A DNA stretch of 64,000 nt, from assembly GCF_032854445.1 (NCBI RefSeq), contig NC_088295.1, positions 94,047,805 through 94,111,804 on the forward strand. The letters run 5' to 3'. Origin of the DNA: Liolophura sinensis (lineage: Eukaryota; Mollusca; Polyplacophora; Chitonida; Chitonidae). The notes beneath the pieces were generated by a model. The model made no database searches and was not told the DNA's origin. It saw nothing but the letters and a program-made list of their open reading frames with translations. Shown in pieces: positions 1,765-54,364 of the stretch (its first letter is position 1; every line of letters starts with the position of its first letter). A program made the translations under genes and the position numbers.

Positions 1765-11530
<9,766 letters not shown>

Positions 11531-30565: not shown

Positions 30566-30884
30566 GTCAAGCAAGATGATTTGTCGAAAAGGGGCAAATC
30601 GGGTGCCATACTCTGTTTGTTTCCATATCTGGTTTGGAGTTTTCTGAGAATCGATCATCTGGGCGATGTTGAGATGTAATGATCCCGTTTCATTTCTCAC
30701 TCATTGTCTTTCTGTGTGCAGTGGACAAACTTTAATGTTTATATATCATTATCTGGTGTGGACAAGTGGGGAGAGTTGGTGTGGCTGGAAACCATAACCA
30801 GAAAACATCCGTGCAGGATAACGACTGTGGTAGTAGTGCGGTGGGTCTTTGAAACTGTTTGAAATATTATCAAGACTGGGTCAA

Positions 30885-33546: not shown

Positions 33547-34838
33547 ACTGTGCTTGTTATTCCTTGTGTATTGTAGGGGAATTTCATTACTGACTTTAAA
33601 ACCATGGAGGAATTGTCATCGAACGTTTCCAAATAAGTTTGTCTTATCAATTTATGTTACATTAACATATTTGTTTCTTCTCTATTGATTTTGTAGGAAT
33701 ATAATTATATATCTGCAACATCAGCTTTTAGCATATTTTCAAATGACGGCTTGTGTTGCGTGTGATACCGCCCTTGTTTCTAAGTTTGCCTGCAGTCAAC
33801 AGTCCAGCATGTCTGGAAGAGGCTTTGTCCTGAACACAATTAAATATTATTCAGTGTTGCTTTAATGTTAACGAACGACACTTCAGCTTTTGGCAAGGTT
33901 TGGCAACTGTATGACTAATATGTACACAGCCCCATTCAAAATCTGGCATCTCCAAATCCACAATACGAGAGAAGATGTCATTTATGCCGAACTACTGAAC
34001 ACGAATAATAAGATCGCGGTACCTGCAGCGGTTCCTAAACTGGGCATCAGTATAATTTGGTCAAACTTTAGAATTATTTGAACACAATAAATAGTGATGG
34101 TACGAATATTACATGTACTGGGAGGCAATAAACAAAACTATATATGCTTGGTAAATACAGAAAATTTGAATTGATTTGATTTGCGTATATGGATTTTTTG
34201 CCAAACTTTCCCGTATAGCTTCTGTAGGTAAGGGCTATTGTTGAAGCAGGTGAGAAATTTTTAAAAAGACCGGTTGAGGCAGGTGTGAAATTGTTAAGAA
34301 GACCTGTGAGGCAGGTGAGGAATTTTCATATGTGGCTGTGTCCGATTTCTTCCAATTAAAATCGGGAAAACGCCTTCAAGAGTAAATATAGTTAAAGAGA
34401 TAAAATGACCAGCATACAACATCAGAACAGTCAGAAAGGCGATCCTACAAGTACGTTGAAGCGTTGATGGCAACATTTCGCAAAATATCCATCCTTCTAT
34501 GCGTTAGAACAGATGGAACTTAATTGTTCTACTAGCCGAAGTATGCAATTGTACTAAACCTGCCCATCCCACTCCCTCTGTTAGTCCCATATACTTGTAT
34601 ACAGGTCAAAGTTTGTGGACATTGATGTAAACGTTAGTGATTATACAGGGGCAGCCTGAGAAGATTAGCTTAAATTAATGTGACGTTTACAGGGAAAGTG
34701 CAGAGAGCGCCATAAATGACGACTTAATGGCCTGTGTTTGTGGTCGTCGTATCCTATTAATTGGTCAGTGTTATGAAATCATTTAGCTCATTTCTATATT
34801 ATCTCCACTGAATTACTTCACTCATTATAACCGAGGTG

Positions 34839-34846
34839 TATATAAG
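34839..34846 (+). promoter_or_regulatory. TATA box of peptide gene 1
   Basis: TATATAAG 92 bp before the start codon at 34931. The region from here to the exon-1 donor is almost unchanged in the second copy, where the box is at 49177-49184. An ATG at 34863 that opens a 29-codon overlapping frame probably lies just upstream of the transcription start set by this box. Confidence 0.75.
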
Positions 34847-34930
34847 AGGCCTGATTGAGGGCATGGGAATTGCACTCGTATACGTCATTACAACAGCATC
34901 TGTTCAGTCAGCTGTACAACCCGGTGCGCC

Positions 34931-37900
34931 ATGTCAACACGGATCAGCCTAGTTCTGCTGCTGGTAGCCCTCACAGTCCACGTGCTGGTGAGTACAAACA
35001 CTATTTACCCCTCACAGTCCACATGATGGTGAGTGCAAACACTATGTAACCCTCACAGTCCACTTCCTGGTGAGTACAAACACTATTTACCCCTCACAGT
35101 CCACATGATGGTGAGTGCAAACACTATGTCACCCTCACAGTCCACGTGCTGGTGAGTACAAACACCATTTAGCCCTCACAGTCTACTGTCTGATGAGTAC
35201 AAACACTATGTAATCCTCACAGTTCACTTGCTGGTGAGTACAAACACTATGTAATCCTCACAGTCTACCGTCTGATGAGTACAAACATTATGTAATCCTC
35301 ACAGTCTACTGTCTGATGAGTACAAATACTATGTAATCCTCACAGTCTACCGTCTGATGAGTACAAACACTATGTAACTCTCACAGTCTACTTACTGGTG
35401 AGTACAAACACTATGTAACTCTCATAGCCCACTCCCTGGTTAGTATAAACATTATGTAACTTCACAGCCTACTCCTTCCGAAATCCGTACATATCAGCAT
35501 TATGTAGCCCTCACAGCCTACTTGCTGGTGAGTACAAACATTATGTAGCCCTCACCGTCCACCTGCTGGTGAATGCAAACACTATGTAGCCCTCACAACC
35601 TACTTAAATATAGGTCTCCGCTCCCCTGTTACTAGACCTTTATTTATTCACATATGACTACGGCTACATGTACAGCATGTTAAAAAGCAATCATCTTCAT
35701 GAAGCCGTAGATTTCATGGCACAGTTTACCTGCATTTATACATTTCCTCTCACTTTGATTGTATGAAAAGAGAAATGACTTCAGTTTGGATAGCGTTAAC
35801 TATCCTTACGGATGGCAGTATCTCAGAAAGCCCTTGACAGGGTGTGTACATATCTAGTCTAGCTGAATATGCTAGAGCGTGCATTAAAACCCACAATTCA
35901 ATCTATGTCACACAACATCGCAGCTGAAACTTCGTAATCTAGGCTTTACCTGCAAGCGCTATCAAGCGCCATCAAGTGCCTCCACTAAAAGCCTATACTT
36001 TGTGAGTATGCACATGTATCTAATTCCGATTAAACCGGTGCTAAGGGCAGTATTAACAGCCAATAGTTTTAATATATCCGCTGTGTTTATATGAATAATT
36101 GCAAACCTTAACTGATATACTTTTTCCCTGCTTTATAGCAAGATTTTATGCCTAATACCTTTATGGATCCATCGGTGTTATAACACAGAAGGTTACGTAA
36201 TACGTAATGGATTTTATATTACACACATATGACCTTCCGACAGCACTGGAAACCTAGATATTCTGAACAATGTTGTTTGTAAATATAATTATGTCATTTC
36301 ATCTCCAACAGTTATAAACAGTTATAAATCCAACAGTCTGAAGCTTTTCATCCCGACGAAACCTTTCGGACTTGTATATGAACTTTTACTTTGACTTGTA
36401 TGAACTTCATTCTGACTTGTGGCCGAGGTGGTTAGCGTGCCAGTGCGCCGCAATGACATGGGAACCTCTCATCAATGCGGTCGCTGTGAGTCCAGCTCAT
36501 GCTGGCTGCCTTTCCGGCTGTTTGTGGGAAGGTATCGCAGCAAACTGTGGACGGTCGTGGGTTTCCCTCGGACTCTTCCCGGTTTCCTTCCACCATAATG
36601 CTGGCCGCCGACGTATAAATGAAATGTTCTTGAGTATGGCGTAAAACACCAATCAAATAAATAAAACTATAAATATTGTATGAACCTGGTATATTCGGCT
36701 TATGTCTGTCCTTCCACGAACACGACACGTTAGATAACTCGGCTTTTCTGAATATCTCCCCAGAGTGCCTTTACCCTGAAGGAAGGCGGCGAGGAGGGTT
36801 TTAAAGACGGGCTGTCCAGGAGAAGGATGCTACAGAATCTGGGTTCAGGTAAGTCGTCTGTCTCTAACAGGGATTACAGTATTGATCAAATTGTAAATTG
36901 TCAGAATATACACGTATAAAAATTCTGAAAGCTAATAGATTTCCAAAAGTACTTTCAAAATTTGCTGAACATTTATACCAGTGAAAACAAAGAGAATTTT
37001 TTTTAAATCCTGCCTTTTTTTCAAAGTTTTATTTTTTAGCCAATTTTCAACACCATTAAAGTTTTGCTGTCCAAGTACAGAGTTTACTATTTTTATCACA
37101 AATTATCTGACAAATTTCCAATATTAGATTTTTCTGAGTGATGATTTAAAGGTAAAACTGTCAAAAGTTTCAAAAGTTTTGAAATATCTTACATTCTTCT
37201 TCTAACAACGTAAAAACTAGAGAAGATATCGATAGTTTGTATGACCGTCTAAGCTTAAGTAATTAGCTACATGCGTGTTGAATTTCAAAGTATTGTGTTT
37301 TTAGAGAATAAGAAAATAAGAGAGAAATGAAAGAATTTAACATCACGATTAACTCAAAAACACAGAAGGAAAGATAATTAATTAATATTAATGCTTTAAT
37401 AAAGCGTAAATTGGCGTTTTATCTTGACAGTTCTGAGCAAAACCTGTTGGAATGCATGTGTTCACAGTCCCCTCCCAGAATGGCATCCTGAAAGGGTTAT
37501 TTAGGCTGTTGTTTTTATTAACATGTTTATAAGGCCAACAATGCCTGAATAAGGAAGAGGCCCGCACTAGCAGTGACAAATGTTAGCAGAAGAATCAAAA
37601 TGTGAAATAAGAAAATGCTGGCCAAATTTCACCTAAATTTTACCTTCCACAATTGCATTAATTGCGCATCTATAACACTACTCCTTAAAATGCATGCGCT
37701 GTTCTCTACGTTAGTTTTAGGTTACACGTGCACAACTGGTGCAATTGGGCCCAAGGTTTGCTACCGAACTGAAGAGTGAAGGAACACTGAATGAAAACTA
37801 CTGCCACAAACATTCTAGGTCGCCGATACACTATTATTCCTGCACTGCTATTTTTTACTTTGTTAAAATAAACCTGTAACAGAATTATGTCCACAACTGA

Positions 37901-39094
37901 AAACTTTTTGTCCAGGGTTAATAGTGAATGCTTGGGTATAAGTCTATAAGGTGCGTGAGTGAGTGCTTGGGTATAAGTCTATAAGGTGATTGAGTTAGTG
38001 CTTGGGTATAAGTCTATAAGGTGAGTGAGTGAGTGCTTGGGTATAAGTCTATAAGGTGTGTGAGTGAGTGCTTGGGTATGAGTCTAAAAGGTGTGTGAGT
38101 GAGTGCTTGGGTATAAGTCTATAAGGTGATTAAATGAGTGCTTGGGTATAAGTCTATAAGGTGAGTGATTGAGTGCTTGAGTATAAGTCTATAAGGTGTG
38201 TGAGTGAGTGCTTGGGTATAAGTCTATAAGGTGCGTGAGTGAGTTCTTGGGTATAAGTCTATAAGGTGATTGAGTTAGTGCTTGGGTATAAGTCTATAAG
38301 GTGTGTGAGTGAGTGCTTGGGTATAAGTCTATAAGGTGAGTGAGTGAGTGCTTGAGTATAAGTCTATAAGGTGAGTGAGTGAGTGCTTGAGTATAAGTCT
38401 ATAAGGTGTGTGAGTGAGTGCTTGGGTATGAGTCTAAAAGGTGAGTGAGTGAGTGCTTGGGTATAAGTCTATAAGGTGAGTGAGTGAGTGCCTGGATATG
38501 TCCATAAGGTGTGTGAGTGAGTGCTTGGGTATAAGTATATAAGGTGCTTAAGTGAGTGCTTGGGTATAAGTCTATCAGGTCAGTGAGTGAGTAAGTGCTT
38601 GGGTATAAGTCTATAAGGTGCGTGAGTGAGTGCTTGGGTATAAGTCTATCAGGTGAGTGAGTGAGTGCTTGGGTATAAGTCTATAAGGTGAGTGAGTGAG
38701 TGCCTGGATATAAGTCCATAAGGTGAGTGAGTGAGTGCTTGGGTATAAGTCTATAAGGTGTGTGAGCGAGTGCTTGGGTATAAGTATATAAGGTGCTTAA
38801 GTGAGTGCTTGGGTATAAGTCTATCAGGTGAGTGAGTGAGTAAGTGCTTGGGTATAAGTCTATAAGGTGCTTAAGTGAGTGCATTGAATTTACTGCATGT
38901 GTACAAAGTGAGTTTCCATGACAACTGATGATCCCTGTTTGATTCCTGCCTCAGGTTACGAGTTCCAGGCGCACGTTGCACGTGTGAACGGTGTGCGCGG
39001 TTACGCCTGCTCGTGCACGCACTATGGCGAAGACGTCAATCTCTACAACTGCTTCAGGCAAATGAACTGGAAAGTGAATTGCATCCACATCTAA
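34931..39094 (+). CDS. Secreted cysteine-rich peptide precursor, paralogue 1 (four-Cys form)
   Basis: Exons 34931-34987, 36764-36848 and 38955-39094 splice (GTGAGT, GTAAGT; CCCCAG, CCTCAG) into a 93-residue precursor. Exon 1 gives the signal peptide MSTRISLVLLLVALTVHVL. Exon 2 gives a short acidic propeptide (LKEGGEEGFKDG) ending in an Arg-Arg-Arg site at 38-40. Exon 3 gives most of a mature peptide of about 53 residues with cysteines at 66, 68, 80 and 90. The paralogue at 49269 has two further cysteines, at 57 and 62; both are arginine here. Four cysteines allow two disulphides. The pre-pro-mature layout is that of antimicrobial peptides or toxins, but the cysteine pattern matches no family I know and the function is unproven. 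The gene has a TATA box and an AATAAA. Intron 1 carries the splice-donor array and a SINE; intron 2 carries a 35-bp array. Confidence 0.82.
34962..35612 (+). repeat. 41-bp array built from the exon-1 end and splice donor, gene 1
   Basis: About 16 copies of a 41-bp unit with core ctcacagtccacgtgctg followed by gtgagtac. The first unit is the real end of exon 1 and its donor, so the array is an expansion across the exon-intron boundary. Two subtypes alternate: ctggtgagt keeps a consensus donor, while ctgatgagt has lost it. Each donor-keeping unit also has an acceptor-like ctcacag 11 bases upstream, so it looks like an 11-base micro-exon. Confidence 0.93.
36406..36675 (+). mobile_element. Full-length SINE family A in intron 1 of gene 1
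   Basis: A tRNA-like head (ggccgaggtggttagcgtg), a body with ccaccataatgctggccgcc and the tail ggcgtaaaacaccaatcaaa then taaataaa. It is flanked by a 10-bp target duplication ttgtatgaac (36396-36405 and 36676-36685). Gene 2 has the empty site (ttgtataaac near 52755), so the insertion came after the gene duplication. Confidence 0.92.
37918..38884 (+). repeat. 35-bp array in intron 2 of gene 1
   Basis: About 28 copies of a 35-bp unit with core gggtataagtctataagg followed by tgagtgagtgagtgc. Many units read ataaggtgagtgag, a near-perfect splice donor in the sense direction. The array ends 70 bp before exon 3. Gene 2 has no such array in its intron 2, so it arose after duplication. Confidence 0.95.
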
Positions 39095-39140
39095 GGCTAA
39101 CTCAAACAAGCTTCCGTTTATTTCTGTCAGAGAAATCTTG

Positions 39141-39146
39141 AATAAA
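39141..39146 (+). terminator. Polyadenylation signal of peptide gene 1
   Basis: AATAAA 47 bp after the stop codon. The same signal in the same context (ttgaataaaattc) follows gene 2 at 54359. Confidence 0.8.
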
Positions 39147-39354
39147 ATTCCGATGACCAAACATTACCAGTAGGTTTGTGATCGTTTTGTTAAGGTGGCG
39201 TGTCGTAAGTGGTTAAATAACTTTTTGGGTGGTTTGTACATGGTATGTTGAGGACAGTTGTAAGGTCAAATACAAGTTTGTCGTATAAACCTATTCCTTC
39301 AACTTGAAACTGGACACATCGGCTTTATGGAGTATGAAGTGGGTATATGGAATT

Positions 39355-39543
39355 GTATATTTATTTATTTATTTGATTGGCGTTTTAAGCCGTACTCAAG
39401 AATATTTCATTACGCGACAGCGATCAGCATGATGGAATTCCTTCAATTTGAAATTGGACACATTTGGTTATCGGAAGGATGAATGTCCGATGGAATGGTA
39501 TATTTATGTATGTATTTGACTGGCGTTTTACGCCGTACTCAAG
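39355..39543 (-). mobile_element. Two SINE family A tail fragments, minus orientation
   Basis: At 39355-39436 tttatttatttgattggcgt leads into cgtactcaagaatatttc. At 39500-39543 a shorter copy reads tgactggcgttttacgccgt. Both contain only the 3' end of the element, consistent with 5' truncation. Confidence 0.8.
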
Positions 39544-39756
39544 GTATGCCAGTTTTTATACCCGCTAGTTAATATGTATGAATGATTTAGTCAGTAAATG
39601 GTTTTGTTCATTTCACTGGAGATTAAGCGACCTCTACCTTATTTTAATCCCAGATTTTGCTAAGTATACTCTTGACTTTTCGTACCATTTTAAATAAAAT
39701 TTAGCGACATAAAGAATTTACACACACTATACCGCGCGCATAGGCCGGGTGCATAA

Positions 39757-40112
39757 GGAATGTCACAGCAAGAGGACATCCCTCAATCAAGCATCTGGGA
39801 CGCGGTGTCGTCTTGCTGTGACATCCCTCAATCAAGCATCTGGGACGCGGTGTCGTCTTGCTGTGACATCCCTCAGTCAAGCAGATGGGACGCGGTGTCA
39901 TCTTGCTGTGACATCCCTCAATCAAGCAGCTGGGACGCGGTGTCGTCTTGCTGTGACATCCCTCAATCAAGCAGATGGGACGCGGTGTCACCTTTTCATG
40001 ACATCCCTCAACCAAACGGCTGGGACGCGGTTTCATCTTGTTCTGACATCCCTCAACCAAACGGCTGGAACACGGTGTCATCTTCCTGTGACATCCCTCA
40101 ATCAAGTGGCAA
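39757..40112. repeat. 45-bp minisatellite
   Basis: About eight copies of a 45-bp unit with core gacatccctcaatcaagca. The period is divisible by three, giving open frames of about 120-134 codons on both strands. Their composition follows the repeat and they are not accepted as genes. The 300 bp that follow (40113-40417) hold nothing recognisable. Confidence 0.95.
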
Positions 40113-40417
40113 GTTTTAATACTGTTTCACCTGTGATGCTAAACGTTTCATGAAAGATGTGTAATATCCAGTAACTGGTGTATGTAAAAGTCACGCGCTT
40201 AAAATATCTGGTTTTGTCCCCCATAACAGCATGACCTTTTGTCGAAGGTGTTGGTGAGACCTTCCCTGTTTCGTCATAAAGGTGTCATGTTCGGTACTTT
40301 TATGTTTCAAACAAGCTGGCATATTGTCAAGATGCCACAGTATACCGTATAGCAAAATGTCATGTCCGGTGATATTTCAAGCATACCAATGAGAATTGGA
40401 TATATTATCTATCATTC

Positions 40418-41485
40418 ATGACGATGCTCTCCTCACACACATCATTATCATTAAACACGATGTTCTGTTCGCACTCACACCATTATCATTCATCACGATG
40501 CTCTGTTCACATTCACTCCGTTATCATTCATCACGATAATCTGTCCACACACTGGCCGTTATCATTCATCACGCTGGTCTGTTCACAGACACAAAGTTAT
40601 CAATCATCATGGCGATCTGTTCACACATTCACAGTTATCATTCACCACGATACTCTGTTAACACACACACACACACACACTATTATCGTCATGATGCTCT
40701 GTTTACACACGCACCGTTCTCATTCATCACAATGCTCTTTTCACACTCACCATTATCATACATCACAATGGTCTGTTGACACACACACCATTATCATTCA
40801 TCACAAATCTCTGCTGACACACTCGACCTTATCATTCATCCCGACGTCCTGTTGACACACTCGCCGTTATCATTCAACACAATGCTCTGTTCACACTCAC
40901 ACCATCATCATTCATCACGCTGGTCTGTTCACACACCCACCGTTATCATTCATCACGATGGTCTGTTCACACACTCGCCGTTATCATTCATCACGATGCC
41001 TTGTTGACCCTCTTGCCCTTATCATTCATCACAATGCTCTGTTCACACACTCACCGTTATCATTCACAACGATACTCTGTTCACTCACACTATTATCATT
41101 CACACTCACCAGTATCATTCATCATGATGCTCTGTTAGCATACACACCGTTATCATTCATCGCAATGCTCTGTTCACACTCACCATTATCATTCATCACA
41201 ATGCTCTGTTCACACGCTGGTCTGTTCACAGACTCTCAGTTATCATTCACCATGGTACTCTGTTCACACACACCATTATCATTCATCACGATGTTCTGTC
41301 CACACACACCATTACCATTCATCACAATGCTCTATTCACAAACTCGCCGTTATCATTCATCACGATGCTATGTTCACACTCACCATTATCATTCGTCACG
41401 ATGCTCTGTCCACTCACACATACACACCGTTATCATTCATCACGATGCTCTGTTCACACACACTGTTATCATTCATCACAAGTAC
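40418..41485. repeat. Roughly 36-bp minisatellite
   Basis: About 30 degenerate copies of a unit with core ttatcattcatcacgatg followed by ctctgttcacac. Unit lengths vary. It is related to the smaller array at 56436-56706, which has ttatcattcatcagaatg. Confidence 0.93.
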
Positions 41486-41828
41486 AGCGATGACACTTAA
41501 GTTTCTATCAGTCACGACATTCCTATCACTGAAAACTGACTCTTAAGTTCCAAGCTCATGCCAAAAACCATTTAAGAATGACCCTATCAACGCTGTCATT
41601 AGGACTTCCATCGGTTATGTTGCGTACAAGGAGGATTTTTCCACCAAAAGATACATTGAGATATAGTGATTATGAAAAGCTAATTGTTAAATTCCAACTG
41701 TATGCTAAAATCCGCCTAAGAGCGGGCCAAAGATCACTAATATGGGCTAAATTATCATAAAACTAGACAAAGGTCAGCGTTGAGTTCTTACTTTAGTGTT
41801 CCTCGTGACAACGTATTCTCACTAAAAC
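41486..41828. other. Intergenic spacer
   Basis: About 340 bp with no gene or repeat that I can support. Confidence 0.4.
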
Positions 41829-42112
41829 GCCGGGAGCAGTAGATCCATGGTCAATCCTGGGACGAGTCACACCTAAGACCTTAAAAGAGGAAGTGCAACG
41901 ACTGGTTGACCCGTCTCAGTAAAATGGCTCGGGCGGGGCCGCTTATTTGCCTTCGGTAAGGCGTCCCAGTAACGCAACACTAGATGAAAGAGCTGTGGAA
42001 AAGAGTCCTGCAACAAGGAGGCACATTGCATGCACTCTAAGGACTCCTTCGTCGTCATATGACTGAAAAAGTGCAACGTTACACCCCAAGCACTCACTCA
42101 CTCACTCACTCA
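41829..42112 (+). mobile_element. tRNA-derived SINE (family B), plus orientation
   Basis: A truncated tRNA-like head (gagcagtagatccatggtcaa, in two parts) is followed by gagtcacacctaagacctta. The body contains ggactccttcgtcgtcatat and is the reverse complement of the element at 21312-21636. It ends in a cactcactcactcact run. Confidence 0.68.
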
Positions 42113-42831
42113 TCCATTCACTAAAACCTGATTATTAAGTTCGCAGCTGTTAAATGGACTAAGTCATTTGAGAAAGCCTTATTAACGCTTATTATGACTT
42201 CGCAGCTAACGCGAAAAGCCATTTAAGGGGGCTAATTAATGCTAATTAGGATTTTCATCTGTCTTGTCGCGAACTGGCGACTGGTTAAAAGACAGACTAT
42301 ACTTGCAAGGGCTCATTCCAACTATCTTCTCAAACCTACTGACGTGAACCATATGCAGTTACATAGCCCGTACATACATGGCCTAGTCTCACGAGACTTT
42401 AAAATCATAGCATTGCATACATATAAATATGTGCATGATAGCTACTGAAATCGTTTGTATAAACAAAAGTTTCATAGAGCTTGAGAATTAAAGAATAAAA
42501 CTGGATAAAAGTGTCTTGGAAAGCGCCAGGATTACCCGTTGTAAAATATTTAGTCTTAAAATATTTAATTATTCTTAGTACTGATTGAAATCAACATTTC
42601 AGTAAAAATACACATGACTGCATGCTGACGTAAAATAAATTGAAACATAAACATGACGTGTTTCTTATGTCTCAGTCTGTCATATATTAATATGGCTTAA
42701 ACATTTTACAATGAAAGAAAATAACAGATGTCTCATTTTTTCTGTTCCACTTTTCCTGTTTTCATTAAAGCAACTTACGACGATGTTCCCCAATTTATTG
42801 ATAAGATATAGTTTATTTATATCTCTACGCC
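42113..42831. other. Intergenic spacer
   Basis: No supported gene. A short Met-led hydrophobic stretch at 42711 (MKENNRCLIFSVPLFLFSL) looks like a signal peptide, but I find no convincing donor after it and do not call it. Confidence 0.35.
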
Positions 42832-42999
42832 ATGCTCGCTTCCTCTTTGGCCGTACGTGGGAAGGTCTGCAGCAACCTGGGGATGGTCATGGGTTTTCCC
42901 CGGGCTCTGCCCGGTTTCCACCCACCATAATGCTGGCCGCAGTCGTATAAGTGAAATATTCTTGAGTACAGCGTATAACACCAATCAAATAAATAAATA
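42832..42999 (+). mobile_element. SINE family A, 5'-truncated, plus orientation
   Basis: The element runs from cgtacgtgggaaggtctgca through gggttttccccgggctct and ccaccataatgctggccgc to the tail aacaccaatcaaataaataa. The tRNA-like head is missing. Confidence 0.85.
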
Positions 43000-43032
43000 C
43001 GTAAATTATATCTCTACGCAAAATTATTTCAG

Positions 43033-43117
43033 CCAGTTGTGTTACAAGCGATCTGCGATCTGCGGATCCGACATCACCAACAAATGTCTCAAACAGCGTT
43101 ACTTAGGACGTCCTTAA
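43033..43117 (+). CDS. Candidate terminal exon with a Kazal-like fragment
   Basis: After an acceptor-like aattatttcag (AG at 43031-43032), a frame reads QLCYKRSAICGSDITNKCLK and continues for eight more codons to TAA at 43115-43117. The CGSDxxTxxxC stretch is the hallmark of Kazal inhibitor domains. An AATAAA at 43210-43215 lies 93 bp downstream, as expected for a last exon. I cannot find the upstream exons with confidence: a SINE lies just 5'. It could be a real small gene, a decayed relative of the Kazal gene at the right edge, or chance. It lies between the two peptide genes. Confidence 0.4.
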
Positions 43118-43215
43118 GTGGTATCATCATTAGCAGTAACCTAGAACTGTTTCTTCAGCCATATACTGCCATTGCGATTATGTCCTCGTGTCCTAGTGTC
43201 CTCGTGAGCAATAAA

Positions 43216-44240
43216 AGTGTTAAGTCAAGTCAAAATTGTACATTTTCAGTGATTCGTCAACTTATTGGAGCTGAAACATATTATAAAAAATCATTTCCGG
43301 ACATTCATTTGAAGATTTTTTGATGAACGCGACTTCAATTACGCACAAAAAAACGCTCCAGACAAAGTTTTTGAAGACCTTTTGACAGAAATTTACCCCA
43401 AACATTGACATTTGATCCATTCTTATGTAGTTTTGTGCAATTTTGCTGGAATTTAAGAATCAGTATTTTTGTATCTCCTTTTGTCGTTTGTTATAAATAT
43501 CATCCTCGTACTCGTCATTACCTGATAAAATTTCAACTTAGCTTTAAGTTGACCGTTTTTAAATTGGTTAAGAGTATTTATGAATGAAGTCTTAATTTTC
43601 TTCTGTCATTAGCTGGACACTTAAGAAATCGCCTTTTCGTGAAAAAGTTGCCCTGAGAAAGATATGTACAGCAAGTTTCATTCTTGTACTCAACCATGTC
43701 CCATGTATTTTAAATGTACTTGAGCAGGGAGTTGGAACTTAAGAATTAGCATTTTATAATCACTATGTCTCAAGTTATCTTTTGATGGAAAAATCCTCCA
43801 TTTACGCGAAATAACCGATAATCAGCGTTAATTACGACTAAATTTTTAATGCAGCTGGAACTGTATGTGGTCGTATTACATGAAGTTATAAATATATAAC
43901 TTATATACAAGTACAATAACACAACAATAATACAATAAGCGTTTCCCTCAGCACGTGTTACAGCAGGAGGAAAATTTTACATTTTCACTTGTAAAGTATC
44001 CTTACGTGGACAGCAGGCATGGTCCTGCGGTATCAGGCATACATATATCGACTTTTAGCGTACTCAATCTCTAATGATAGATTTCCATAATGTTTGATAT
44101 GTTGACGCGATGCATGTTTTCATAACAACTCTACATGTATACGAGCGTGTGCGCCACTACACAGTGTGTGTTCCCACCCTTTTTGTAAGTGCCAAGTGTT
44201 CGCTAGATTGCTCCCAATAAACATCTTTAACACGAATAAC
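43216..44240. other. Intergenic spacer
   Basis: About 1 kb with low GC and no recognisable feature, ending at the Ty3/gypsy fossil. Confidence 0.4.
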
Positions 44241-44261
44241 GGACATTCTTTAATCATTAGA

Positions 44262-46826
44262 TGGTATCAGAAGTGGAGCACACAAGTGCCCGCATAGTAC
44301 AAGAGGGCGGCTTGCCACCACGGAAAGCTTTGAATCATGACGGCTTGTGGTTGTCAGTTGCCTTGGCATCCAGGACTATGCCATGAGCCGAGTGTAGGTA
44401 TGCGCAAATTGAAAAAAATGCTCTTGTCAGTACCTACCCATGTGAACATTTTTATCAGTACATTTATGGTCAGGCTGCTGAAATTGAAACAGATTACAAG
44501 CACTTGGAGGCCGTATTCAAAAAGGGAGTGAATAATTGCCCTCTAAGACAACAACGATTCCGACTGCGATTGTAAAAGTATGACTTCACTGTGTGTTATA
44601 AAACTGGGAAGCTGATGTTTACCGCAGATGCTTTTTCTAGAGCTTATAACAAACAGAAAGTGCCAGTTAGCAGTACAGAGACTGATTTACAAACATACGT
44701 TGCCGGCATACTGTCAAATGTACAGGTGTCTGAGGAACGACTAGATGACATCAGAACTCAAACAGCTAATGATACTGTGATGTCACTCTTGTCAGTGTGA
44801 TTCTTGATGGATGCCCTAACGACAAAAAATCTTGTCCTACTGAGATCTCTGAATTTTGGTTGGAATTATAGGGATGAACTGACCACCATTGAAGGATTGG
44901 TGCTTAAAGGCTCCAGAATTGTGATCCCCAGATGCACGACCTTATGTTGACAAAAGTTCACAAAGGTCATCTTGGTCAAGAAAAGTGTACACGTAGAGCC
45001 CATGAAGTGTTATTTTGGCCTCGTATGTATCAAGACATTGGCAATGTAGTGAAAAACTGTGAACTATGTATTACGTACAGACCAAGGCGGCAGAGTGAGC
45101 CGTTGTTTCCATATCCAGTAACTGTACGACCTTGGCAAAAGGTTGCCACTGATTTGTGCTATTTTGACAACAAAAACATTCCCAGAGATCAGTGAGATCA
45201 GTGGATCCGGAAATAAACCAGTAATCCAAGCATTAAAATCTGTATTTGCCAGACATGGTATACCAGTTGAAGGACCATGTAACAACAGTAATGAATTAAA
45301 ACAGTTCTCTACAAATGGAGGGATTTACCCGTTCTACATTTAGCCCATTGTACCCTCAGCCCAATGGACTAATACAAAAAGTCGTTCAGATTGTGAAGGG
45401 GATACTGAAGAAATCTTGGGACAGTGATGATGATCCATATCTTGGACTGCTGTGTACAGTAGTTCACCTCTTGAGAATGGAATTTCTCCTCCTCAGTTGT
45501 TAATGAATCAACACATTCGCTCAAATTTGCCCATAAAGGAATATTTGCATAGAGTTAAAAACTGTTCGTAGAAAATTGGAACAGAAGAGGAAACAAAAGC
45601 TGTATCATGACAAGGGAAGCCGACCTCTACTGCCATTGAGCCCTGGGCAAAGGTGCGTATCAGGGAATAGAAATCCTGGGTACAGAAAGGAACTGTTCGC
45701 CACGTAGCCCCTCGTTCCTGTCTTGTGCGAACAACCGATGGCTTGGTGTTTAGACTTGACGTGATTGGTGTTTTACGCCATAGTCAAGAATATTTCACTT
45801 ATACGACGGCGGCCAGCATTATGGTGGGTGGAAACCGGGCAGAGCCGGAGAGAAAGCCAGCATGAGCTGGACTTGCACTCACAGCGACCGCATTGGTGAG
45901 AGACTCCTGGGTCATTGCTTGGTGTTTAGAAGGAATCGCCTTGATTTGCTGCATGTTAATCAGACAAGCCCTGATATTTACTAACAGCCAGCCGAGAACC
46001 AACTATTTGAACAGCTACAATATCAGAAACCTATTGTGACAGATAGCAGAGAGCTGACTGCTTCATCACTTGAACCTATATGTTATTCCTCCAGCTGGAA
46101 GCAACTGACAACAGGACCCAAACTGACCAGTACCACTGACACCCTACAACCCGTCCAGCTAGGCCAAGGAGAGAAATTAAGCCACCAGTGAGATGTAAAT
46201 TCAAGGTTTCATAGACTGCGGTGTGATTTAAGATAGTACATGAACTGTAATGTCCTTCATGGATTGTGGTGTGATTAGTATAAATGGTCCTACAAGTGTC
46301 ACACGTGGATGTTGATGTTTTCCCTACTGTTGTTGCCTCTTCATATTACTCTGTCATCACTCCATTCTGATTATTCATTCCTCTGCAATGTTAACAGGGT
46401 TCACTAAACATCCAGTTTCGCGCCGTAGTACATAAAGTTTTTAGTTACTGGCGGCAACGGTATTGTGCCATGTTATATGAAGGGTGTTTGATATGCATTT
46501 TCTCGGACCCACTGGGCTCGTGTATCTGCATGCTGATTGGATATGTTGTTATTCAGTTGTTCACATAGCTGAAAAAATTTTGTTTTCTGCCCCCCTCAAG
46601 TATTGTATTCGGGCTTGTAGACTATGGTTATATTCCATTTGACATACTTGTTCCAATCAATAGTTGTTCAGGGCAGATGTTAAGTTGTTATCATCGTTGC
46701 ATAAGCTTTGTTTTCTGTCCCCTCAGGTCAGCCTGTTCTGAGACCAGTACCATTTGAAATAAAGCATTCTACATGTCACTAGCCTGTCGTCCCAAGTTAT
46801 TCCCATCATAAGTAACCCACGTTACA
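44262..46826 (+). mobile_element. Ty3/gypsy LTR retrotransposon fossil
   Basis: A Ty3/gypsy remnant in plus orientation. Recognisable parts are a primer-binding-site-like stretch near 44262, the end of the reverse transcriptase-RNase H region (about 44400-44700), and the zinc-binding and core parts of integrase (about 44930-45500). A candidate 3' LTR spans 46246-46826, starting TGTAA and ending TTACA, with an AATAAA near its end. No matching 5' LTR is apparent. It is broken many times over and a SINE has inserted into it, so it is old and inactive. Boundaries are approximate. Confidence 0.75.
45755..45916 (-). mobile_element. SINE family A inserted in the Ty3/gypsy fossil
   Basis: Minus-oriented family A copy (gattggtgttttacgcca, ttatacgacggcggccagc, catgagctggacttgcac). 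It is flanked by a perfect 14-bp target duplication gcttggtgtttaga at 45741-45754 and 45917-45930. It is younger than the element it interrupts. Confidence 0.93.
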
Positions 46827-47345
46827 CAAGTATGAACTGAGACGTGCTCATAGACTGTTATTTGGATTAAGAAGTTGGAAAGTGTGCTATATAAATGTGT
46901 ACTGAATCATTTGCTTCATTCTTGGTGAAGAACACAATGAACTCGTAAACTGTGTTAGATTGACTGAATGATCTTGACAGATTCAATGTTCTTAAGACAG
47001 CTCTCTATTTTCCGTGTGAACATTCTACGTTAATGCCAATTAAATCTCTTTTCAATGCGGACTTAAAACCGATCCAGCCGATCAGTTGAATTTGTTTTAC
47101 AGTTTGCTAAAGTTAAAAAAAGAGATGTGATGATAGATTACTGGACCGAAAAGTAATGAAGATTCGTCATCGAACATTTCTAAATAAGTTTCTGAACAAG
47201 ATCCGTGTATCTGTATTGCTGATCAATATTGTACAAAGCCTGAAATATCTAAACTGAACAAAAATGTAAACTCAACAATATTTTGATAAAATTAACTGCA
47301 TTATCAAATTCTTTCCGATACCGTTTTTCAGAGGGGGGGGGAGGT
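46827..47345. other. Intergenic spacer, left edge of duplication copy 2
   Basis: Homology to copy 1 begins at about 47150 (cgtcatcgaacatttctaaa). A run of g at 47332-47341 precedes the inverted repeat. No gene is seen. Confidence 0.4.
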
Positions 47346-47872
47346 TTTGCCATTTGTGGAGATTCTCCAAATTTCTGACTTGTTTCGTCATTTCTTTCAT
47401 TCATGCACGATGCCTTGCCGTGTGCAGCGAACGAAAGCTATCTCCTTTCAAGTACTTCCGTCAATGCACATGCGTTTCCGGGTAACTTAATCTCGAAGAC
47501 GTTACATTAATTAGAAGATAAGTTGACTGGATTATGGCCAGACTATCTGTGTTTATATGATGTTCGCTCCTCAGGTTTCAGAGATCGGGATAAGAGGACT
47601 TCGGCACTGGAAGAAATCGTCAGCAAGCTTGGTCAAACTGGTAATGTTTGCATTTCTATGTTCATAACACACAGATGTCCGCTTTGATCAGCCGTCTGCT
47701 TTTATCATGTCGTCGTGCACTGCCATCTTGCAGACCATGTGACCCGGGAAGGCATGCGCATTGGGACTACCTGAAAGGAGTTTTCGTTCGAAGCACACGG
47801 CAAGGCATCTTGCACGAGTGAAAGAAATTATCAAACGTTAAATATTTGGCGCATCTCCACAAAAGGCAAAAT
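47346..47872. mobile_element. Long inverted-repeat element with an exon-like loop
   Basis: Two arms of about 135-140 bp, 47346-47487 and 47739-47872, are inverted copies of each other at roughly 75% identity by eye. Shared strings include gatgccttgccgtgtgc, cgaacgaaa and ctcctttca. Copy 1 of the duplication has no such structure, so it probably inserted later as a foldback or MITE-type element. A perfect 9-bp stem hairpin (ggcacttgc/gcaagtgcc) lies just outside at 47895-47914. Confidence 0.65.
47575..47640 (+). CDS. Candidate orphan exon inside the inverted repeat
   Basis: A 66-base exon-like block lies between an excellent acceptor (gctcctcag) and a donor (ACTG|GTAATG). In the phase used by the peptide genes (phase 1 on both sides) it reads FRDRDKRTSALEEIVSKLGQ then T. 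It has a dibasic KR and a short amphipathic stretch. A phase 1-1 exon would fit between exons 2 and 3 of the peptide gene, yet it lies upstream of copy 2's exon 1. I do not recognise it. It may be a captured exon, part of a lost third gene, or chance. Confidence 0.3.
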
Positions 47873-49176
47873 TTACAGAAACTTCACCGCCGACGGCACT
47901 TGCGTGCAAGTGCCACGAATAAATTTTTGCTGGGCACATAGCTCTCGTGTGCGCCGGGCTTTAAGATCATGCTATCGTCGAACATGCCGATGGCGCGCCC
48001 TCGTTGGTTTTGTGGCATCTGTGGCATAGGGTCTTTTGACAGAACATATACTGTAGTGGAAACCATTCTTGTGCGTGTGAAGGTATGTCTAATTTAACGA
48101 GGGGCATTTCACTTCAGCTAAAGTTTGACAATTGGGTAACTATATAAGCCCCATAAAAAACCTGTATCTCAAAATCCACAGTACGAGAGACCCTGTAATT
48201 TATGCGGCACTGGGACACGAATAGCGAGGTCGCGGGATCTGCTCCAGCACACGCTGGCTTGGGCGCTGATTTAAAGAGACTATACCAAGATTTTGCCAAA
48301 GAAAAGGTCGATAAGCGATTTACTATTAGGCCAAATACTTAAGGTTCACGAAATATCAGCCTTGTCTGTGCACGTCACCGTTAAATTGATCAGGACGTTC
48401 CTAAAGTGGGTCGGACTATACTTTCTGACAAACTTTAGAATCATTTTAACACAATAGACAGTACAGATACGAGTATTACATTTGCCGGAAGTTGAGCTAT
48501 AAATTCTTGTTAAAAAAAACAAAACAGAAAATTTGATTTGATTACCGAATGTAGATATTTTTGCCAATATCTCGGCATAACCTTTGTAAGTAAAAATATT
48601 TGTTGAAGTAGGTGTCGATTTTGCGGTATACTTGTGAAGTTTTTCTATGTGGTCTGCTTTCCTGTCTGCTTTATTACAAACAATAAGAATGGTATAAGAA
48701 AGGTTAAAAGTAAATAGAGATAGAGAAAATGATCAGTTTGCTACATAAGTACAAATAGAAAGGCGATCATACAAGTGCATTTACGTTGGAGTGTTGATGG
48801 CGACATTTCGCAAAATGTTCATGCTAATATGCGTTTGAATAGATTGAACTCTAATTATACTATCGCCTGGTATGCCATTTTGCTAAACATACACGTAGGG
48901 CCCGTTCCCACGGCAAACACCTCGCCCACTCTTTCTCTTGGCCCTTATAGGCATGTTAAGATTGGCAGACAATGATAGTGAGCTTTAGTGAATATCCAGT
49001 GACAGCGCTAAATGATTTCGAAAACATTGACCAATTAACACGACACGGCCACAAATACAGACTCATTATGTCGTCATTTATAGCGCTCTCTGCATTTTCC
49101 CTCTAAACTTCACATTAATTTAAGCCTATTTATCTATTATCCACACTAAACACCCTCACTCATTATAGACAAGGTG

Positions 49177-49184
49177 TATATAAG
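49177..49184 (+). promoter_or_regulatory. TATA box of peptide gene 2
   Basis: TATATAAG 92 bp before the start codon, the same spacing as in gene 1. The segment from TATA to donor differs at only a couple of positions between the two copies. Confidence 0.75.
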
Positions 49185-49268
49185 AGGGCTGATTGAGGGC
49201 ATGGGAATTGTACTCGTATACGTCATTACAACAGCATCTGTTCAGTCAGCTGTACAACCCGGTGCGCC

Positions 49269-52200
49269 ATGTCAACACGGATCAGCCTAGTTCTGCTGCT
49301 GGTAGCCCTCACAGTCCACGTGCTGGTGAGTACAAGCACTATGTAACCCTCACAGTCCACTTCCTGGTGAGTCCAAACACTATATACCCCTCAGAGTCCA
49401 CGTGATGGTGAGCGCAAACACTATGTCACCCTCACAGTCCACGTGCTGGTGAGTACAAACACCATTTAGCCCTCACAGTCCACGTGCTGGTGAGTACAAG
49501 CACCATTTAGCCCTCACAGTCTACTGTCTGATGAGTACAAACACTATGTAGCCCTCACAGTCCATGTGTTGGTGAGTACAAACACTATGTAGCCCTCACA
49601 GTCCATGTGTTGGTGAGTACAAACACCATTTAGCCCTCACAGTCTACTGTCTGATGAGTACAAACACTATGTAACTCTCATAGTCCACGTACTGGTGAGT
49701 ACAAACACAATGTAGCCCTCACAGTCCATGTGTTGGTGAGTACAAACACTATGTAGCCCTCACAGTCCATGTGCTGGTGAGTGCAAACACTATGTCACCC
49801 TCACAGTCCACGTGTTGGTGAGTACAAACACTATGTAGCCCTCACAGTCTACTGTCTGATGAGTACAAACACTATGTAGCCCTCACAGTCCACGTGCTGG
49901 TGAGTACAAACAATACGTAATCCTCACAGTCCATGTGATGGTGAGTACAAGCACTATGTAGCCCTCACAGTCCACCGTCTGGTGAGTACAAACACTGCGT
50001 AGCCCTCATAGCCCCCGTGCTGGTGAGTATAAACACTGTGTAACTCTCACAGTCCACGTGGTGTGGAATACAAACACTATGTAGCCCTCACAGCCCAGGT
50101 GCTGGTGAGTACAAACACTATGTAATCCTCACAGTCCACGTGTTGGTGAGTACAAACAATATGTAGCCCTCACAGTCCACGTGCTGGTGAGTACAAACAA
50201 TACGTAATCCTCACAGTCCACTTGCTGGTGAGTACAAACACTATATAACCCTCACATTCTACGTAATGGTGATAAGTACAAACACTATGTAACCCTCACA
50301 GCCTGCCGTCTGATGAGTATAAACACTATGTAACCCTCACAGTCTACCGTCTGATGAGTACAAACACTATGTAACCCTCACAGCCCAAGTGCTGGTGAGT
50401 ACAAACACTATGTAATCCTCACAGTCCACGTGCTGGTGAGTACAAACACTATGTAGCCCTCACAGTCTACCGTCTGATGAGTACAAGCACTATGCAATCC
50501 TCACAGTCCACGTGCTGGTGAGTACAAACACTATATAGCCCTCACAGTCTACCGTCTGATGAGTACAAGCACTATGTAACCCTCACATTCTACGTAATGG
50601 TGAGTAAGTACAAACACTATGTAACTCTCACAGTCCACGTGACTGGCTTTGTATATATACTTTGACATTAAGACTTACAGATCTGTTCAAGCAGACGTGG
50701 ACTACAGGTTATCTGCATACCGAAGGCTTTACCTTTGGAGCATTTTATTATAGCTGAGTTTGGGTTACAATTTTTCTTGTCAATGAAGTATTCAGATTAG
50801 CTGTTGTCATGACTCATCCTGCACAGTATGAACTTCAACTCACGACGATTTCCTAGTCGACTACGTAGTACTGTGTCGTGTAACAGAATCTGTCCACAGT
50901 GTAACGAGAGATAGGTATAGGCGACGAATCCATGTAACAGTATGTTATCGTGCAACATGAACATTATCTGGCTCTGCCCAAAAAAGATAAGTATTCCTAA
51001 CATCCAATCCTATGATGTGTATGGATAGTGTTTACTAGCCACGGCAGACATAAATTATTATCATTAGGCAAATGTGTCATTTCATTTCAGTTTTTATTCA
51101 CCATAAACCTTAAATTGAATACATAGGTACATATGCGCGGTACATTTTGCGGGAATAAAGCTCACAAGAGCTTGTTCTATCAGGAATCATAAAAGATGTT
51201 GGAAACTTTAGGTACAAGAACTTTAGGGAACTGATTTTCTTTTTGTCATTAACCTACATAAGCAACCTAAGTGCGGCTTAATCAAATTGCTCAAGGAGAT
51301 ATCGTTTAAGCCAGGATTTAAAATGAGATGTGGAATTTATAATACGAAGAGTGATGGGTAGTTTGTTCCATTCTTCAGGGCAAATTGTTCTTAACGAGAC
51401 GTACGATAAGTTCGTGCTGTACATAGGTCTATTATAATCTAATCGAGTTGCTCTAGTCACATAGTGATGGGTAGCAGATTGTTTTAACGGGTAAGTTCGA
51501 AGCTTGGAGAAATAAGTTCGGGATGATAGAAAAACTTGTGTGCTAAGCGTGATACAGGTAGAATGTTCATCTCGCAGTGGTAAGATGTCAGAGATATATT
51601 CTGCATATCTGTGTTGTAATTAAAGGCAGCACAGTTTTATCAATGCTGACAGAATGTTTTAATAGTGTAAGCCTGTATACTCTTCGTCTTTGGTTGTTAT
51701 CCGTTCTATTTCCAAACACGAAATAAACATCAGCGGTACAGATCCACCTCATCTTCAAATTAACTAATCCACCCAATAAAGAATTTAATAATATTCGTCA
51801 ATAATGTGAGGCCTCCTTTGGTATTTGTCGGTGTTTTATTATCTAACTCATGTTATAGAACTCCAATGATGAAACTCCTATGACAAAACTCATATTTTAT
51901 AACTTCTGGTGTAAAACTCCTATGACAAAACTCGTGTTTTAGAACTCCTGGTGTAAGTCTCCTATGATAAAACTCATGTTTTATAACTCCTGGTGTAAAA
52001 CTCCTATGACAAAACTCGTGTTTAGAACTTCTGGTGTAAGCCTCCTAAGACAAAACTCATGTTTTAGAACTCCTGGTGTATGTCTCCTATGATAAAACTC
52101 ATGTTTTATAACTCCTGGTGTAAAACTCCTATGACAAAACTCGTGTTTTAGAACTTCTGGTGTATGTCTCCTATGATAAAACTCATGTTTTATAACTCCT

Positions 52201-54312
52201 GGTGTAAAACTCCTATGACAAAACTCGTGTTTAGAACTTCTGGTGTAAGCCTCCTAAGACAAAACTCATGTTTTAGAACTTCTGTTGTATGTCTCCTATG
52301 ATAAAACTCATGTTTTATAACTCCTGGTGTAAAACTCCTATGACAAAACTCGTGTTTTAGAACTTCTGGTGTATGTCTCCTATGATAAAACTCATGTTTT
52401 ATAACTCCTGGTGTAAAACTCCTATGACAAAACTCGTGTTTTAGAACTTCTGGTGTAAGCCTCCTAAGACAAAACTCATGTTTTAGAACTTCTGGTGTAA
52501 GCCTCCTATGATAAAACTCGTGTTTTAGAACTCCTGGTGTAAGCCTCCTATGATAAAACTCATGTTTTATAACTCCTGGTGTAAGTCTCCTATGACAAAA
52601 CTCATGTTTTATAACTCCTGGTGTGAGACTCCTATTGTTAAACTCTTTCTATAATAATCCTGTTATGAAACACCTGTTATAAATCCAACAGTCTGAAGCT
52701 TTTCATCCGGACGAAACCTTTTGGACTTGTATATTAACTTTTACTTTGATTTGTATAAACGTTTCGTATTCGCCTAATTTCCGTGTCTTTCCACGAACAC
52801 GACACCTTAAATAACGCAGCTTTTCTGAACGTCTCCCCAGAGTGCCTTTACCCTGAAGGAAGGCAGCGAGGAGGGTTATAAAGACGGGCTGTCCAGGAGA
52901 AGGATGCTACAGAATCTGGGTTCAGGTAAGTCGTCTGTCGTGTATATATATTCTGAAAGCCAAAAGATTTTCAAAAATACTTCTAAAATTTATGTAACAT
53001 CTGTAGAGGTGAAAACAAAAGATTTTTTAAAAAAGCCTGGCCATTTTTTCTCCAGTTTTCAATATTTTTAAACTTTTGTTGTCCAAACACATATTTAACT
53101 ATTTCAATTAAAAAAATGACAGATTTCTGTTATTCATCTTAGATTTTTCTGATATATAGACTAATGTTAAGACTTTCAAAAGTTTTGAAAACTTTGATAT
53201 TCTTTTACTAATACCATAAAAACTAGAGATGATATCGATAATTTGTAGGACCGTCTTAGCTTTAGCATTTAGCTACATGCTAAGCATGCGTTCCAAATTT
53301 CAAACCAATATGTTTTTAGAGATTAAGGAAATAAGACAGGAATTTCACCTCACGCTTGTCTCAAAAACAGAAAAGTCAAAGCTGTCAAAATTCATCATTC
53401 ATTCGTTTGAAAATTGTGAAAATTAACTTTCATTAAGAATTGTTCCCTTTCTCGCCCAAAAAACACATCACCCTATGTATGCAGATAAAAAAAATTACAA
53501 TATTCTATTAAAGCGTAAATTTTATCTTAAAGGCTCTGAGCAAAATCTGCTGGAGTGCGTGTGTTTACAGTTTCCTCCCAGAATGGCTCCCTAGATTCTG
53601 TTATTTTCTTTTTTTTACATTCTTTAACATGTTTATATTTATTTCTTTTTTATTTGATTGATGTTTTACGCTGTACTTAAAAATATTTCACTAGCATTAT
53701 GGCCAGCATTATGGTGGGGAGGAAACCGCGCAGAGCCCGGGACAAAACATGTTTATAAGGTGCACTATGCCTGAGTAGGTCTGCACATGCAGTGACGTAC
53801 GTTACAGACAAATGCTGACAGGAGAATCAAACCGAGAAATTTCACCTTCTATAACGGCATGCTGATTAAATAGTTCCACTCGATGGCACCAGTGGTTAGG
53901 TAAAGCCTAAACAAGCCTACGTGTCGCACGGGCTCAAAAGGTCAAGCTTGTCTAGTGGTGGCAGAGATATAAAGCGAGCGTAGAGAGCGGCGTATGTGCT
54001 ACAAGGAGTAGGCCTATGATGTGTAACCTATAAGGACAGAGCTGTGCGGTTAAGGCTGTAAGGATGAGGCTATATCAAATTAAACAGTGGCGTATAAAGC
54101 TTGTACGTTGCCTTTAGCATGCGTACAATGTTTCCATGACAACTGATGTACCCTGGTTTGGTTTCTCCTCAGGTTTGGAATTCCAGGCCCACTCTGCTTG
54201 TATATACGGTACGTGCGGTTACGCCTGCTTGTGCAGGCGCTATGGCGAAAAAATCCACGTCAGCAACTGCTTCTGGCAAATGGACTGGAGACCGAATTGC
54301 ATCCGCACCTGA
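49269..54312 (+). CDS. Secreted cysteine-rich peptide precursor, paralogue 2 (six-Cys form)
   Basis: Exons 49269-49325, 52841-52925 and 54173-54312 have exactly the lengths and phases of gene 1 and give 93 residues. Exon 1 (signal peptide) is identical in sequence. Exon 2 differs at two bases (G to S and F to Y) and keeps the Arg-Arg-Arg site. Exon 3 gives a mature part with cysteines 57, 62, 66, 68, 80 and 90, pattern C-x4-C-x3-C-x-C-x11-C-x9-C, allowing three disulphides. It differs from gene 1 at 21 of 46 residues. It ends in TGA with AATAAA 46 bp on. The spacing does not fit CS-alpha-beta defensins, big defensins, macins or myticins as I know them. Host-defence or toxin-like function is inference from the precursor layout and the divergence pattern. 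Intron 1 is 3.5 kb, mostly arrays plus a LINE fragment; intron 2 holds a SINE. Confidence 0.84.
49300..50652 (+). repeat. 41-bp array built from the exon-1 end and splice donor, gene 2
   Basis: About 32 copies of the same unit as in gene 1 (ctcacagtccacgtgctg then gtgagtac), twice as many as its paralogue. Donor-keeping (ctggtgagt) and donor-less (ctgatgagt) subtypes are again mixed. The first unit coincides with the true exon-1 end. Some units contain tgtgttggtgagtac, keeping the donor with changed flanks. Confidence 0.93.
50653..51072. other. Intron 1 of gene 2, plain stretch
   Basis: About 420 bp between the donor array and the LINE fragment with no recognisable feature. Confidence 0.4.
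51073..51600 (-). mobile_element. Non-LTR retrotransposon (LINE) 3' end, minus orientation
   Basis: On the minus strand a frame reads HHYVTRATRLDYNRPMYSTN and then contains ICPEEWNKLPITLR and FKSWLKRYLLEQFD before a stop. This is the conserved C-terminal end of a LINE reverse transcriptase of the Jockey/CR1/L2 type. A 3' UTR with gaataaaaactgaaatgaaa follows, ending near 51073 in a short tgaaa repeat. It is 5'-truncated, as most LINE copies are. It lies inside intron 1 of peptide gene 2. Confidence 0.78.
51835..52652. repeat. 42-bp minisatellite in intron 1 of gene 2
   Basis: About 19 copies of a 42-bp unit with core ataactcctggtgtaaaac, with variants (agaacttctggtgtaagcc) arranged in a higher-order pattern. 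Gene 1 lacks it, so it post-dates the duplication. Confidence 0.95.
53638..53745 (-). mobile_element. SINE family A 3' fragment in intron 2 of gene 2
   Basis: Minus-oriented tail and body (gattgatgttttacgctgta, cagcattatggtggggagg) flanked by a 12-bp target duplication aacatgtttata at 53626-53637 and 53746-53757. Gene 1 keeps the empty site (ttaacatgtttataagg near 37519), so the insertion post-dates the duplication. Confidence 0.92.
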
Positions 54313-54358: not shown

Positions 54359-54364
54359 AATAAA
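54359..54364 (+). terminator. Polyadenylation signal of peptide gene 2
   Basis: AATAAA shortly after the stop, in the same context as in gene 1. Confidence 0.8.

What the first reader, a model, noticed from the sequence alone, without database searches (positions are those of the whole stretch)
34931..54312. Undescribed-looking pair of secreted cysteine-rich peptide genes with a fast-changing mature part
Seen: two paralogous three-exon genes with identical exon lengths and phases. Exon 1 is identical (57 of 57 bases), exon 2 has two base changes, and exon 3 has 21 of 46 residues changed. In exon 3 only three codons differ silently while 21 differ in amino acid. Established: a conserved signal and propeptide with a hypervariable cysteine-framed mature peptide is the mark of toxin and host-defence peptide families under diversifying selection. 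Inference: this is such a family, with a framework (C-x4-C-x3-C-x-C-x11-C-x9-C) that I cannot match to a known one.
Basis: partly seen in the sequence, partly recalled or inferred. Interest (0 to 1): 0.88.

Follow-up and report, generated by a model that had tools for sequence, protein, structure and literature searches.

The report
Chiton gene pair for secreted peptides
Two neighbouring chiton genes look like an apparently unannotated pair of small secreted, cysteine-containing peptides whose leader stays nearly fixed while the active part changes at least as fast as unconstrained DNA, a familiar pattern in defence, mating and toxin peptides, here with no relative found in the searches made.

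Summary
Two tandem three-exon genes (93 codons each) lie at 34931-39094 and 49269-54312, in the chiton Liolophura sinensis. Exon 1 is identical, exon 2 has two changes, exon 3 has 21 of 46 residues changed and three silent codons. Correction: the six-cysteine framework is in gene B only; gene A has Arg at the first two positions.

Neighbouring introns give a neutral yardstick (about 14.5% different). Exons 1-2 fall far below it (omega 0.13, p 7e-5). Exon 3 silent sites match it; replacement sites exceed it (omega 2.0, p 0.0035). That excess survives CpG stratification (p 0.011-0.016) but not removal of CpG sites (p 0.24), and codons alone give p 0.12. "At or above neutral" is solid; positive selection is suggestive.

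No relative in Pfam, NCBIfam, the PDB or 5.8 billion proteins, which include L. sinensis proteins. A local 264-kb scan found only these two genes. Weak models of both show a hairpin plus helix, with residues 57 and 62 facing: an optional disulfide staple. Best reading: an orphan, basic-site-processed secreted effector, most likely defence. Expression is untested.

The parts
34832..34930 (+). gene A core promoter and 5' UTR: TATATAAG at 34839-34846, 92 bases before the ATG; 3 differences to gene B in the 150 bases 34832-34981, against 14 in the 50 bases upstream
   Evidence: TATA role recalled
34931..34987 (+). gene A exon 1, codons 1-19, signal peptide (by hydrophobicity, no signal predictor run); identical to gene B
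   Evidence: best 11-residue Kyte-Doolittle mean 2.93
34964..35597 (+). 41-bp minisatellite, about 15 copies; first unit is the last 24 nt of exon 1 plus its splice donor
36764..36848 (+). gene A exon 2, codons 20-47 and first base of 48: propeptide, tribasic site SRRR (codons 37-40), start of mature part
38955..39094 (+). gene A exon 3, rest of mature part, 4 Cys, stop TAA
39141..39146 (+). gene A AATAAA signal
49177..49268 (+). gene B TATA element (49177-49184) and 5' UTR
49269..49325 (+). gene B exon 1, signal peptide
49302..50646 (+). same 41-bp minisatellite, about 33 copies
52841..52925 (+). gene B exon 2, propeptide with SRRR
54173..54312 (+). gene B exon 3, rest of mature part, 6 Cys, stop TGA
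54359..54364 (+). gene B AATAAA signal

Best explanation
Two tandem, intact, protein-coding genes in a chiton encode 93-residue precursors of one orphan peptide family. Exon 1 is the signal peptide. Exon 2 is a mildly acidic propeptide ending in a tribasic convertase site (SRRR). Exon 3 is most of the mature part (about 53 residues, near 6.1 kDa, slightly cationic, four or six Cys). Shown: anatomy, constraint on leader and propeptide, and exon 3 change at or above the neutral rate with the frame kept. Inferred: the precursor enters the secretory path, is cut after SRRR, and folds as a beta-hairpin plus helix held by two disulfides, with a third (C57-C62) stapling the hairpin tip in B only. It then acts outside the cell on targets that change quickly, most likely microbes at mucus or haemolymph surfaces, the duplicated copies diverging to cover different targets.
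For: Identical architecture and an open frame despite heavy intron indels. TATA element, ATG, splice sites and AATAAA kept in both. Exons 1-2 omega 0.13 tied to introns, p 7.3e-5; exon 3 omega 2.03, p 0.0035; codon bootstrap 95% range 1.14-3.01, 1 of 60 resamples at or below 1. Exon 3 codon positions 1+2: 25/90 against 114/791, p 0.0015; CpG-stratified odds ratio 1.86, one-sided p 0.011, 0.016 with continuity correction. Mature pI 7.7 (A) and 8.3 (B), propeptide without the RRR pI 4.4 (computed for A). Both models give strands 49-58/61-70 and a helix, which puts residues 57 and 62 opposite each other. Conserved leader and propeptide, an ORF over three exons, a dibasic site and a variable Cys-rich mature part is the build of mussel CRP-I (PMC10138031, passages).
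Against: Only two sequences. Exon 3 codons alone do not reject omega 1 (p 0.12; Fisher p 0.13); exons 1-2 alone are uninformative, having no silent change (p 0.23). Without CpG sites the exon 3 excess falls to 17/103 against 100/744, p 0.24, and for codon positions 1+2 to 14/69, p 0.087; without codons 74-78 to omega 1.64, p 0.066. No transcript seen. The protein collection holds named L. sinensis proteins (3 of 28 rows) yet neither precursor was found, so they seem unannotated. Net charge is low (+0.7, +1.6). Models are poor (pLDDT 62 and 69) with no fold match. Defence itself has no direct evidence: the tested mussel peptide sCRP-I H1 had MIC above 32 uM on four of four bacteria.
Confidence: 0.45

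Rival explanations
1. Mating or gamete-recognition peptide pair (waterborne pheromone or egg/sperm coat ligand): conserved leader and 5' UTR with the receptor-binding part changing under sexual coevolution.
For: Rates pattern fits equally; near-fixed TATA-to-exon-1 stretch; tribasic convertase site; low net charge; only two copies found.
Against: No expression data; no reproductive protein matched.
Confidence: 0.2
2. Relaxed constraint: exon 3 drifts near neutrality after duplication (its apparent excess being CpG hypermutability), with A possibly having lost a disulfide, while exons 1-2 are held or converted.
For: Non-CpG sites alone show no significant excess (p 0.24); codons alone p 0.12; A lost or never had two Cys, both as C/T changes; not found among known proteins.
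Against: No stop or frame break where about 8 indels were expected in exon 3; four Cys, splice sites and signals kept in both; exon 2 bounded closely by diverged introns; CpG-stratified test still p 0.011-0.016. 0 of about 38 silent sites differ in exons 1-2, so nucleotide-level constraint or conversion acts there as well.
Confidence: 0.2
3. Peptide hormone or neuropeptide precursor pair acting on a receptor of the animal itself.
For: Single Cys module after a basic site; regulated-secretion type cleavage (no Arg at P4, so not a full furin site; rule recalled).
Against: Hormones usually keep the mature part and vary the rest (recalled); here it is reversed. No family match.
Confidence: 0.08
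4. Venom or prey-directed toxin as in cone snails.
For: Signal/pro/mature precursor over three exons; three is the commonest exon number of conotoxin genes, though that paper notes exons need not match the three regions (PMC10561478, passages).
Against: Chitons are grazers without a known venom gland (recalled); only two copies found; no conotoxin family in Pfam matched at E 10.
Confidence: 0.03
5. Not genes: a chance open frame in duplicated DNA.
For: No transcript or annotation seen.
Against: Frame, splice sites and exon bounds kept through about 14.5% divergence; exons 1-2 omega 0.13.
Confidence: 0.03

Closest known systems
CRP-I cysteine-rich peptides of Mytilus (PMC10138031, passages seen)
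   Same: Molluscan; ORF over three exons; conserved signal and propeptide, dibasic site, variable Cys-rich mature part reported under positive selection; groups that lost cysteines.
   Different: Array there is C-C-CC-C-C, predicted knottin, with many genes; here no adjacent Cys, six or four Cys, two genes found. No direct sequence comparison with CRP-I was made beyond Pfam and the protein collection.
Conotoxin precursors (PMC10561478, passages seen)
   Same: Mostly three-exon genes; fast mature part; that paper also cites mature exons diverging more than flanking non-coding DNA.
   Different: No family match, no venom system known (recalled), two copies found; here replacement sites of the mature exon run at about twice the neutral rate, against about three times the flanking divergence cited there.
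Big defensins (PMC7203481, passages seen; a transcript is reported there from Chiton olivaceus)
   Same: Signal, propeptide with dibasic site, Cys-rich part after a phase 1 intron; in gastropods the ATG lies in exon 1 before a phase 0 intron, the same phase order as here. Present in a chiton.
   Different: No hydrophobic N-terminal domain (though short forms without it are reported in two bivalves), only four Cys in gene A, no Pfam match; a helix, not a three-stranded sheet, in the weak models. Shared intron phases are a lead, not a test.
EGF-like domains
   Same: A stretch GYAC-x-C recalls the C4-x-C5 part (recalled resemblance).
   Different: Six-Cys order does not fit, A keeps only four, no Pfam match at E 10.

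Membership tests
Mytilus CRP-I | Conserved signal and propeptide with KR/RR cleavage site | tested here: met
   exons 1-2 nearly identical, SRRR at codons 37-40
Mytilus CRP-I | C(X3-6)C(X1-7)CC(X3-4)C(X3-5)C array | tested here: not met
   no adjacent CC in either peptide
Mytilus CRP-I | Knottin fold | tested here: inconclusive
   hairpin plus helix at low confidence
Conotoxin superfamilies | Sequence match to a conotoxin family | tested here: not met
   Pfam at E 10 gives none for A and one weak DUF below cut-off for B
Conotoxin superfamilies | Venom-duct expression | not testable with these tools
   no expression data
Big defensins | Hydrophobic N-terminal domain before the Cys part (canonical form) | tested here: not met
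   sequence; no family
Big defensins | Six Cys paired 1-5, 2-4, 3-6 | tested here: not met
   gene A has four Cys; pairing in B not testable here
Big defensins | Phase 1 intron before the Cys part | tested here: met
   phases; passages
EGF-like | Six-Cys EGF profile match | tested here: not met
Fast-evolving secreted Cys-rich effector peptides (kind, not family) | Leader under constraint | tested here: met
   omega 0.13 tied to introns, p 7.3e-5
Fast-evolving secreted Cys-rich effector peptides (kind, not family) | Mature part above neutral rate | tested here: inconclusive
   p from 0.0015 to 0.24 by test and control
Fast-evolving secreted Cys-rich effector peptides (kind, not family) | Bioactivity or immune/reproductive expression | not testable with these tools
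   no RNA or assay

The most novel reading that the evidence does not exclude
A chiton-specific peptide family with its own fold (one long beta-hairpin plus a helix on two disulfides) in which a third disulfide stapling the hairpin tip is gained or lost between tandem copies, so that tip rigidity itself is the trait being diversified under positive selection.
Probability: 0.15. Interest if true: 0.6.

Novelty: new member of a known kind. Interest (0 to 1): 0.4.

Why it matters
The searches made here turned up few papers that mention chitons together with defence or cysteine-rich peptides (5, 1 and 0 papers), and short fast-evolving genes are easily missed by homology-based annotation. This pair gives a clean test case: introns supply the neutral rate, exons 1-2 the constrained control and exon 3 the changing part. 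The paired 4-Cys/6-Cys state makes a testable prediction about one disulfide.

Tried and rejected

Literature: Liolophura genome, 6 papers; chiton with antimicrobial peptide, 5; cysteine-rich Acanthopleura, 1; conserved signal/hypervariable mature terms, 10; Liolophura antimicrobial peptide, 0; Polyplacophora/conotoxin-like terms, 13 of which 10 listed; plethodontid modulating factor with disjunctive evolution, 0. Listings and abstract starts only, except passages of PMC11068029, PMC10138031, PMC10561478 and PMC7203481 and the whole text of PMC12441733.
Full report
SOURCE. The window is G000:C1:94047805-94111804; C1 has 96,433,062 bases and the assembly 632 contigs. PMC11068029 (passages) gives 632 scaffolds, the longest 96,433,062, for the chiton first named Liolophura japonica; the correction (PMC12441733, whole text) renames it L. 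sinensis. The total differs slightly (609,464,459 held against 609,495,693 printed).

OBSERVATION. Gene A exons are 34931-34987, 36764-36848 and 38955-39094; gene B exons are 49269-49325, 52841-52925 and 54173-54312. Lengths and phases are the same. Residue differences are 0 of 19 in exon 1, 2 in exon 2 (G28S, F32Y) and 21 of 46 in exon 3, with three silent codons and different stop codons. Both have a TATATAAG 92 bases before the ATG and an AATAAA after the stop (read). At positions 57 and 62 A has Arg, each by one C/T change, so A keeps four cysteines.

RATES. I aligned intron 1's end, parts of intron 2 and the 3' flank: 791 positions, 114 or 115 differences by aligner setting, 45 indel events. 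The intron 1 minisatellite and parts of the introns without clear alignment were left out. Exon 3 silent divergence (dS 0.17) is close to this level (JC 0.10 to 0.18 by piece), and replacement divergence is 0.31. A joint codon-intron likelihood gives omega 2.03 for exon 3 (2dL 8.52, p 0.0035) and 0.13 for exons 1-2 (p 7.3e-5). Results against: exon 3 codons alone do not reject 1 (p 0.12; Fisher p 0.13), and exons 1-2 alone say nothing (p 0.23). Nine of 33 exon 3 differences are CpG transitions, against 7 of 114 in introns. With CpG sites removed, exon 3 is 17/103 against 100/744 (p 0.24) and codon positions 1+2 are 14/69 (p 0.087). Stratifying by CpG keeps an excess (odds ratio 1.86, one-sided p 0.011, 0.016 with continuity correction). 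Dropping codons 74-78 gives omega 1.64, p 0.066; resampling codons gives 1.14-3.01, with 1 of 60 resamples at or below 1. So exon 3 changes at the neutral rate or faster with the frame kept; positive selection is likely but not proved by two sequences.

LEADER. From the TATA element to near the end of exon 1 only 3 of 150 bases differ (34832-34981), against 14 of the 50 bases just upstream, and no silent site of about 38 in exons 1-2 differs. Exon 2's conservation stops near its splice sites, which favours selection over a random conversion tract. For exon 1 and the 5' UTR conversion cannot be excluded.

PRODUCT. The precursor has a likely signal peptide (hydrophobic stretch mean 2.93; no signal predictor was run), a propeptide (computed for A) of pI 4.4 before the basic site, SRRR, and a mature part of 53 residues with pI 7.7 (A) and 8.3 (B). 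Two AlphaFold runs on the exon 3 pair, each with one paralogue first, gave the same strands 49-58 and 61-70 and a helix at 77-82 or 77-84 (pLDDT 62 and 69). In that hairpin 57 and 62 face each other, so the pair of cysteines present in B and absent in A would be one disulfide. This is inference from weak models; I did not see coordinates. By chance alone, two cysteines lost at random would be partners in 3 of 15 cases.

RELATIVES. None in Pfam, NCBIfam, PDB sequences, viral contigs or the protein collection. The collection does hold proteins named L. sinensis: 3 of the 28 rows for the neighbouring receptor. The absence therefore means that these precursors are probably missing from the public annotation, not that the species is missing. 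Only proteins of 0.55 to 1.75 times the query's length were candidates. In the genome, precursor B found just these two genes, and 264 kb of local sequence held no further clear copy. Gene A's exon 3 was sent 17 times for a loose genome-wide search and never answered, so distant copies elsewhere are not excluded.

MECHANISM. Most likely: secretion, cut after SRRR, disulfide folding, and action outside the cell on a fast-changing partner. Defence is my first choice because the build matches mussel CRP-I (PMC10138031, passages), but that family's tested peptide had MIC above 32 uM on four of four bacteria, and mating or gamete recognition explains the rates as well. Membership in CRP-I and canonical big defensins fails on tested features, and conotoxins and EGF-like on the profile match. 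The order of intron phases (0, then 1) is that described for gastropod big defensins (PMC7203481, passages), a lead that the cysteine count does not support.

VERDICT.

Noticed in passing
34964-35597 and 49302-50646: The intron 1 minisatellite is seeded by the exon 1 splice junction: each 41-bp unit repeats the last 24 nt of exon 1 plus its splice donor, giving 8 (A) and 22 (B) GGTGAGT copies, the real donor included. Decoy donors could affect splicing; not tested.
   Followed up: partly
37923-38882: Intron 2 of gene A holds a 35-bp array (27 copies) whose unit contains AAGGTGAGTG, also donor-like; no array is listed in gene B's intron 2.
   Followed up: no
34668-34787 and 49007-49125: A 120-bp stretch just upstream of the two promoters is inverted between the paralogues at 86% identity.
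   Followed up: no
30837-31895 and 14192-15001: Two rhodopsin-type receptor frames on the same strand (PF00001). The first is closest to aminergic receptors and GPR21 in the PDB and has relatives at 42-51% identity, several molluscan; the second is closest to prostaglandin receptors.
   Followed up: partly
44576-45707: Decayed retroelement pieces between the genes; one frame resembles the zinc-binding part of a retrotransposon integrase (resemblance recalled).
   Followed up: no
36419-36650, 45762-45918, 59004-59242: Dispersed repeat, 80-89% alike in the pieces compared, probably a molluscan SINE (name recalled).
   Followed up: no
1-64000: Very dense minisatellites: 79 tandem-repeat rows, some long arrays such as 2690-6586.
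   Followed up: no
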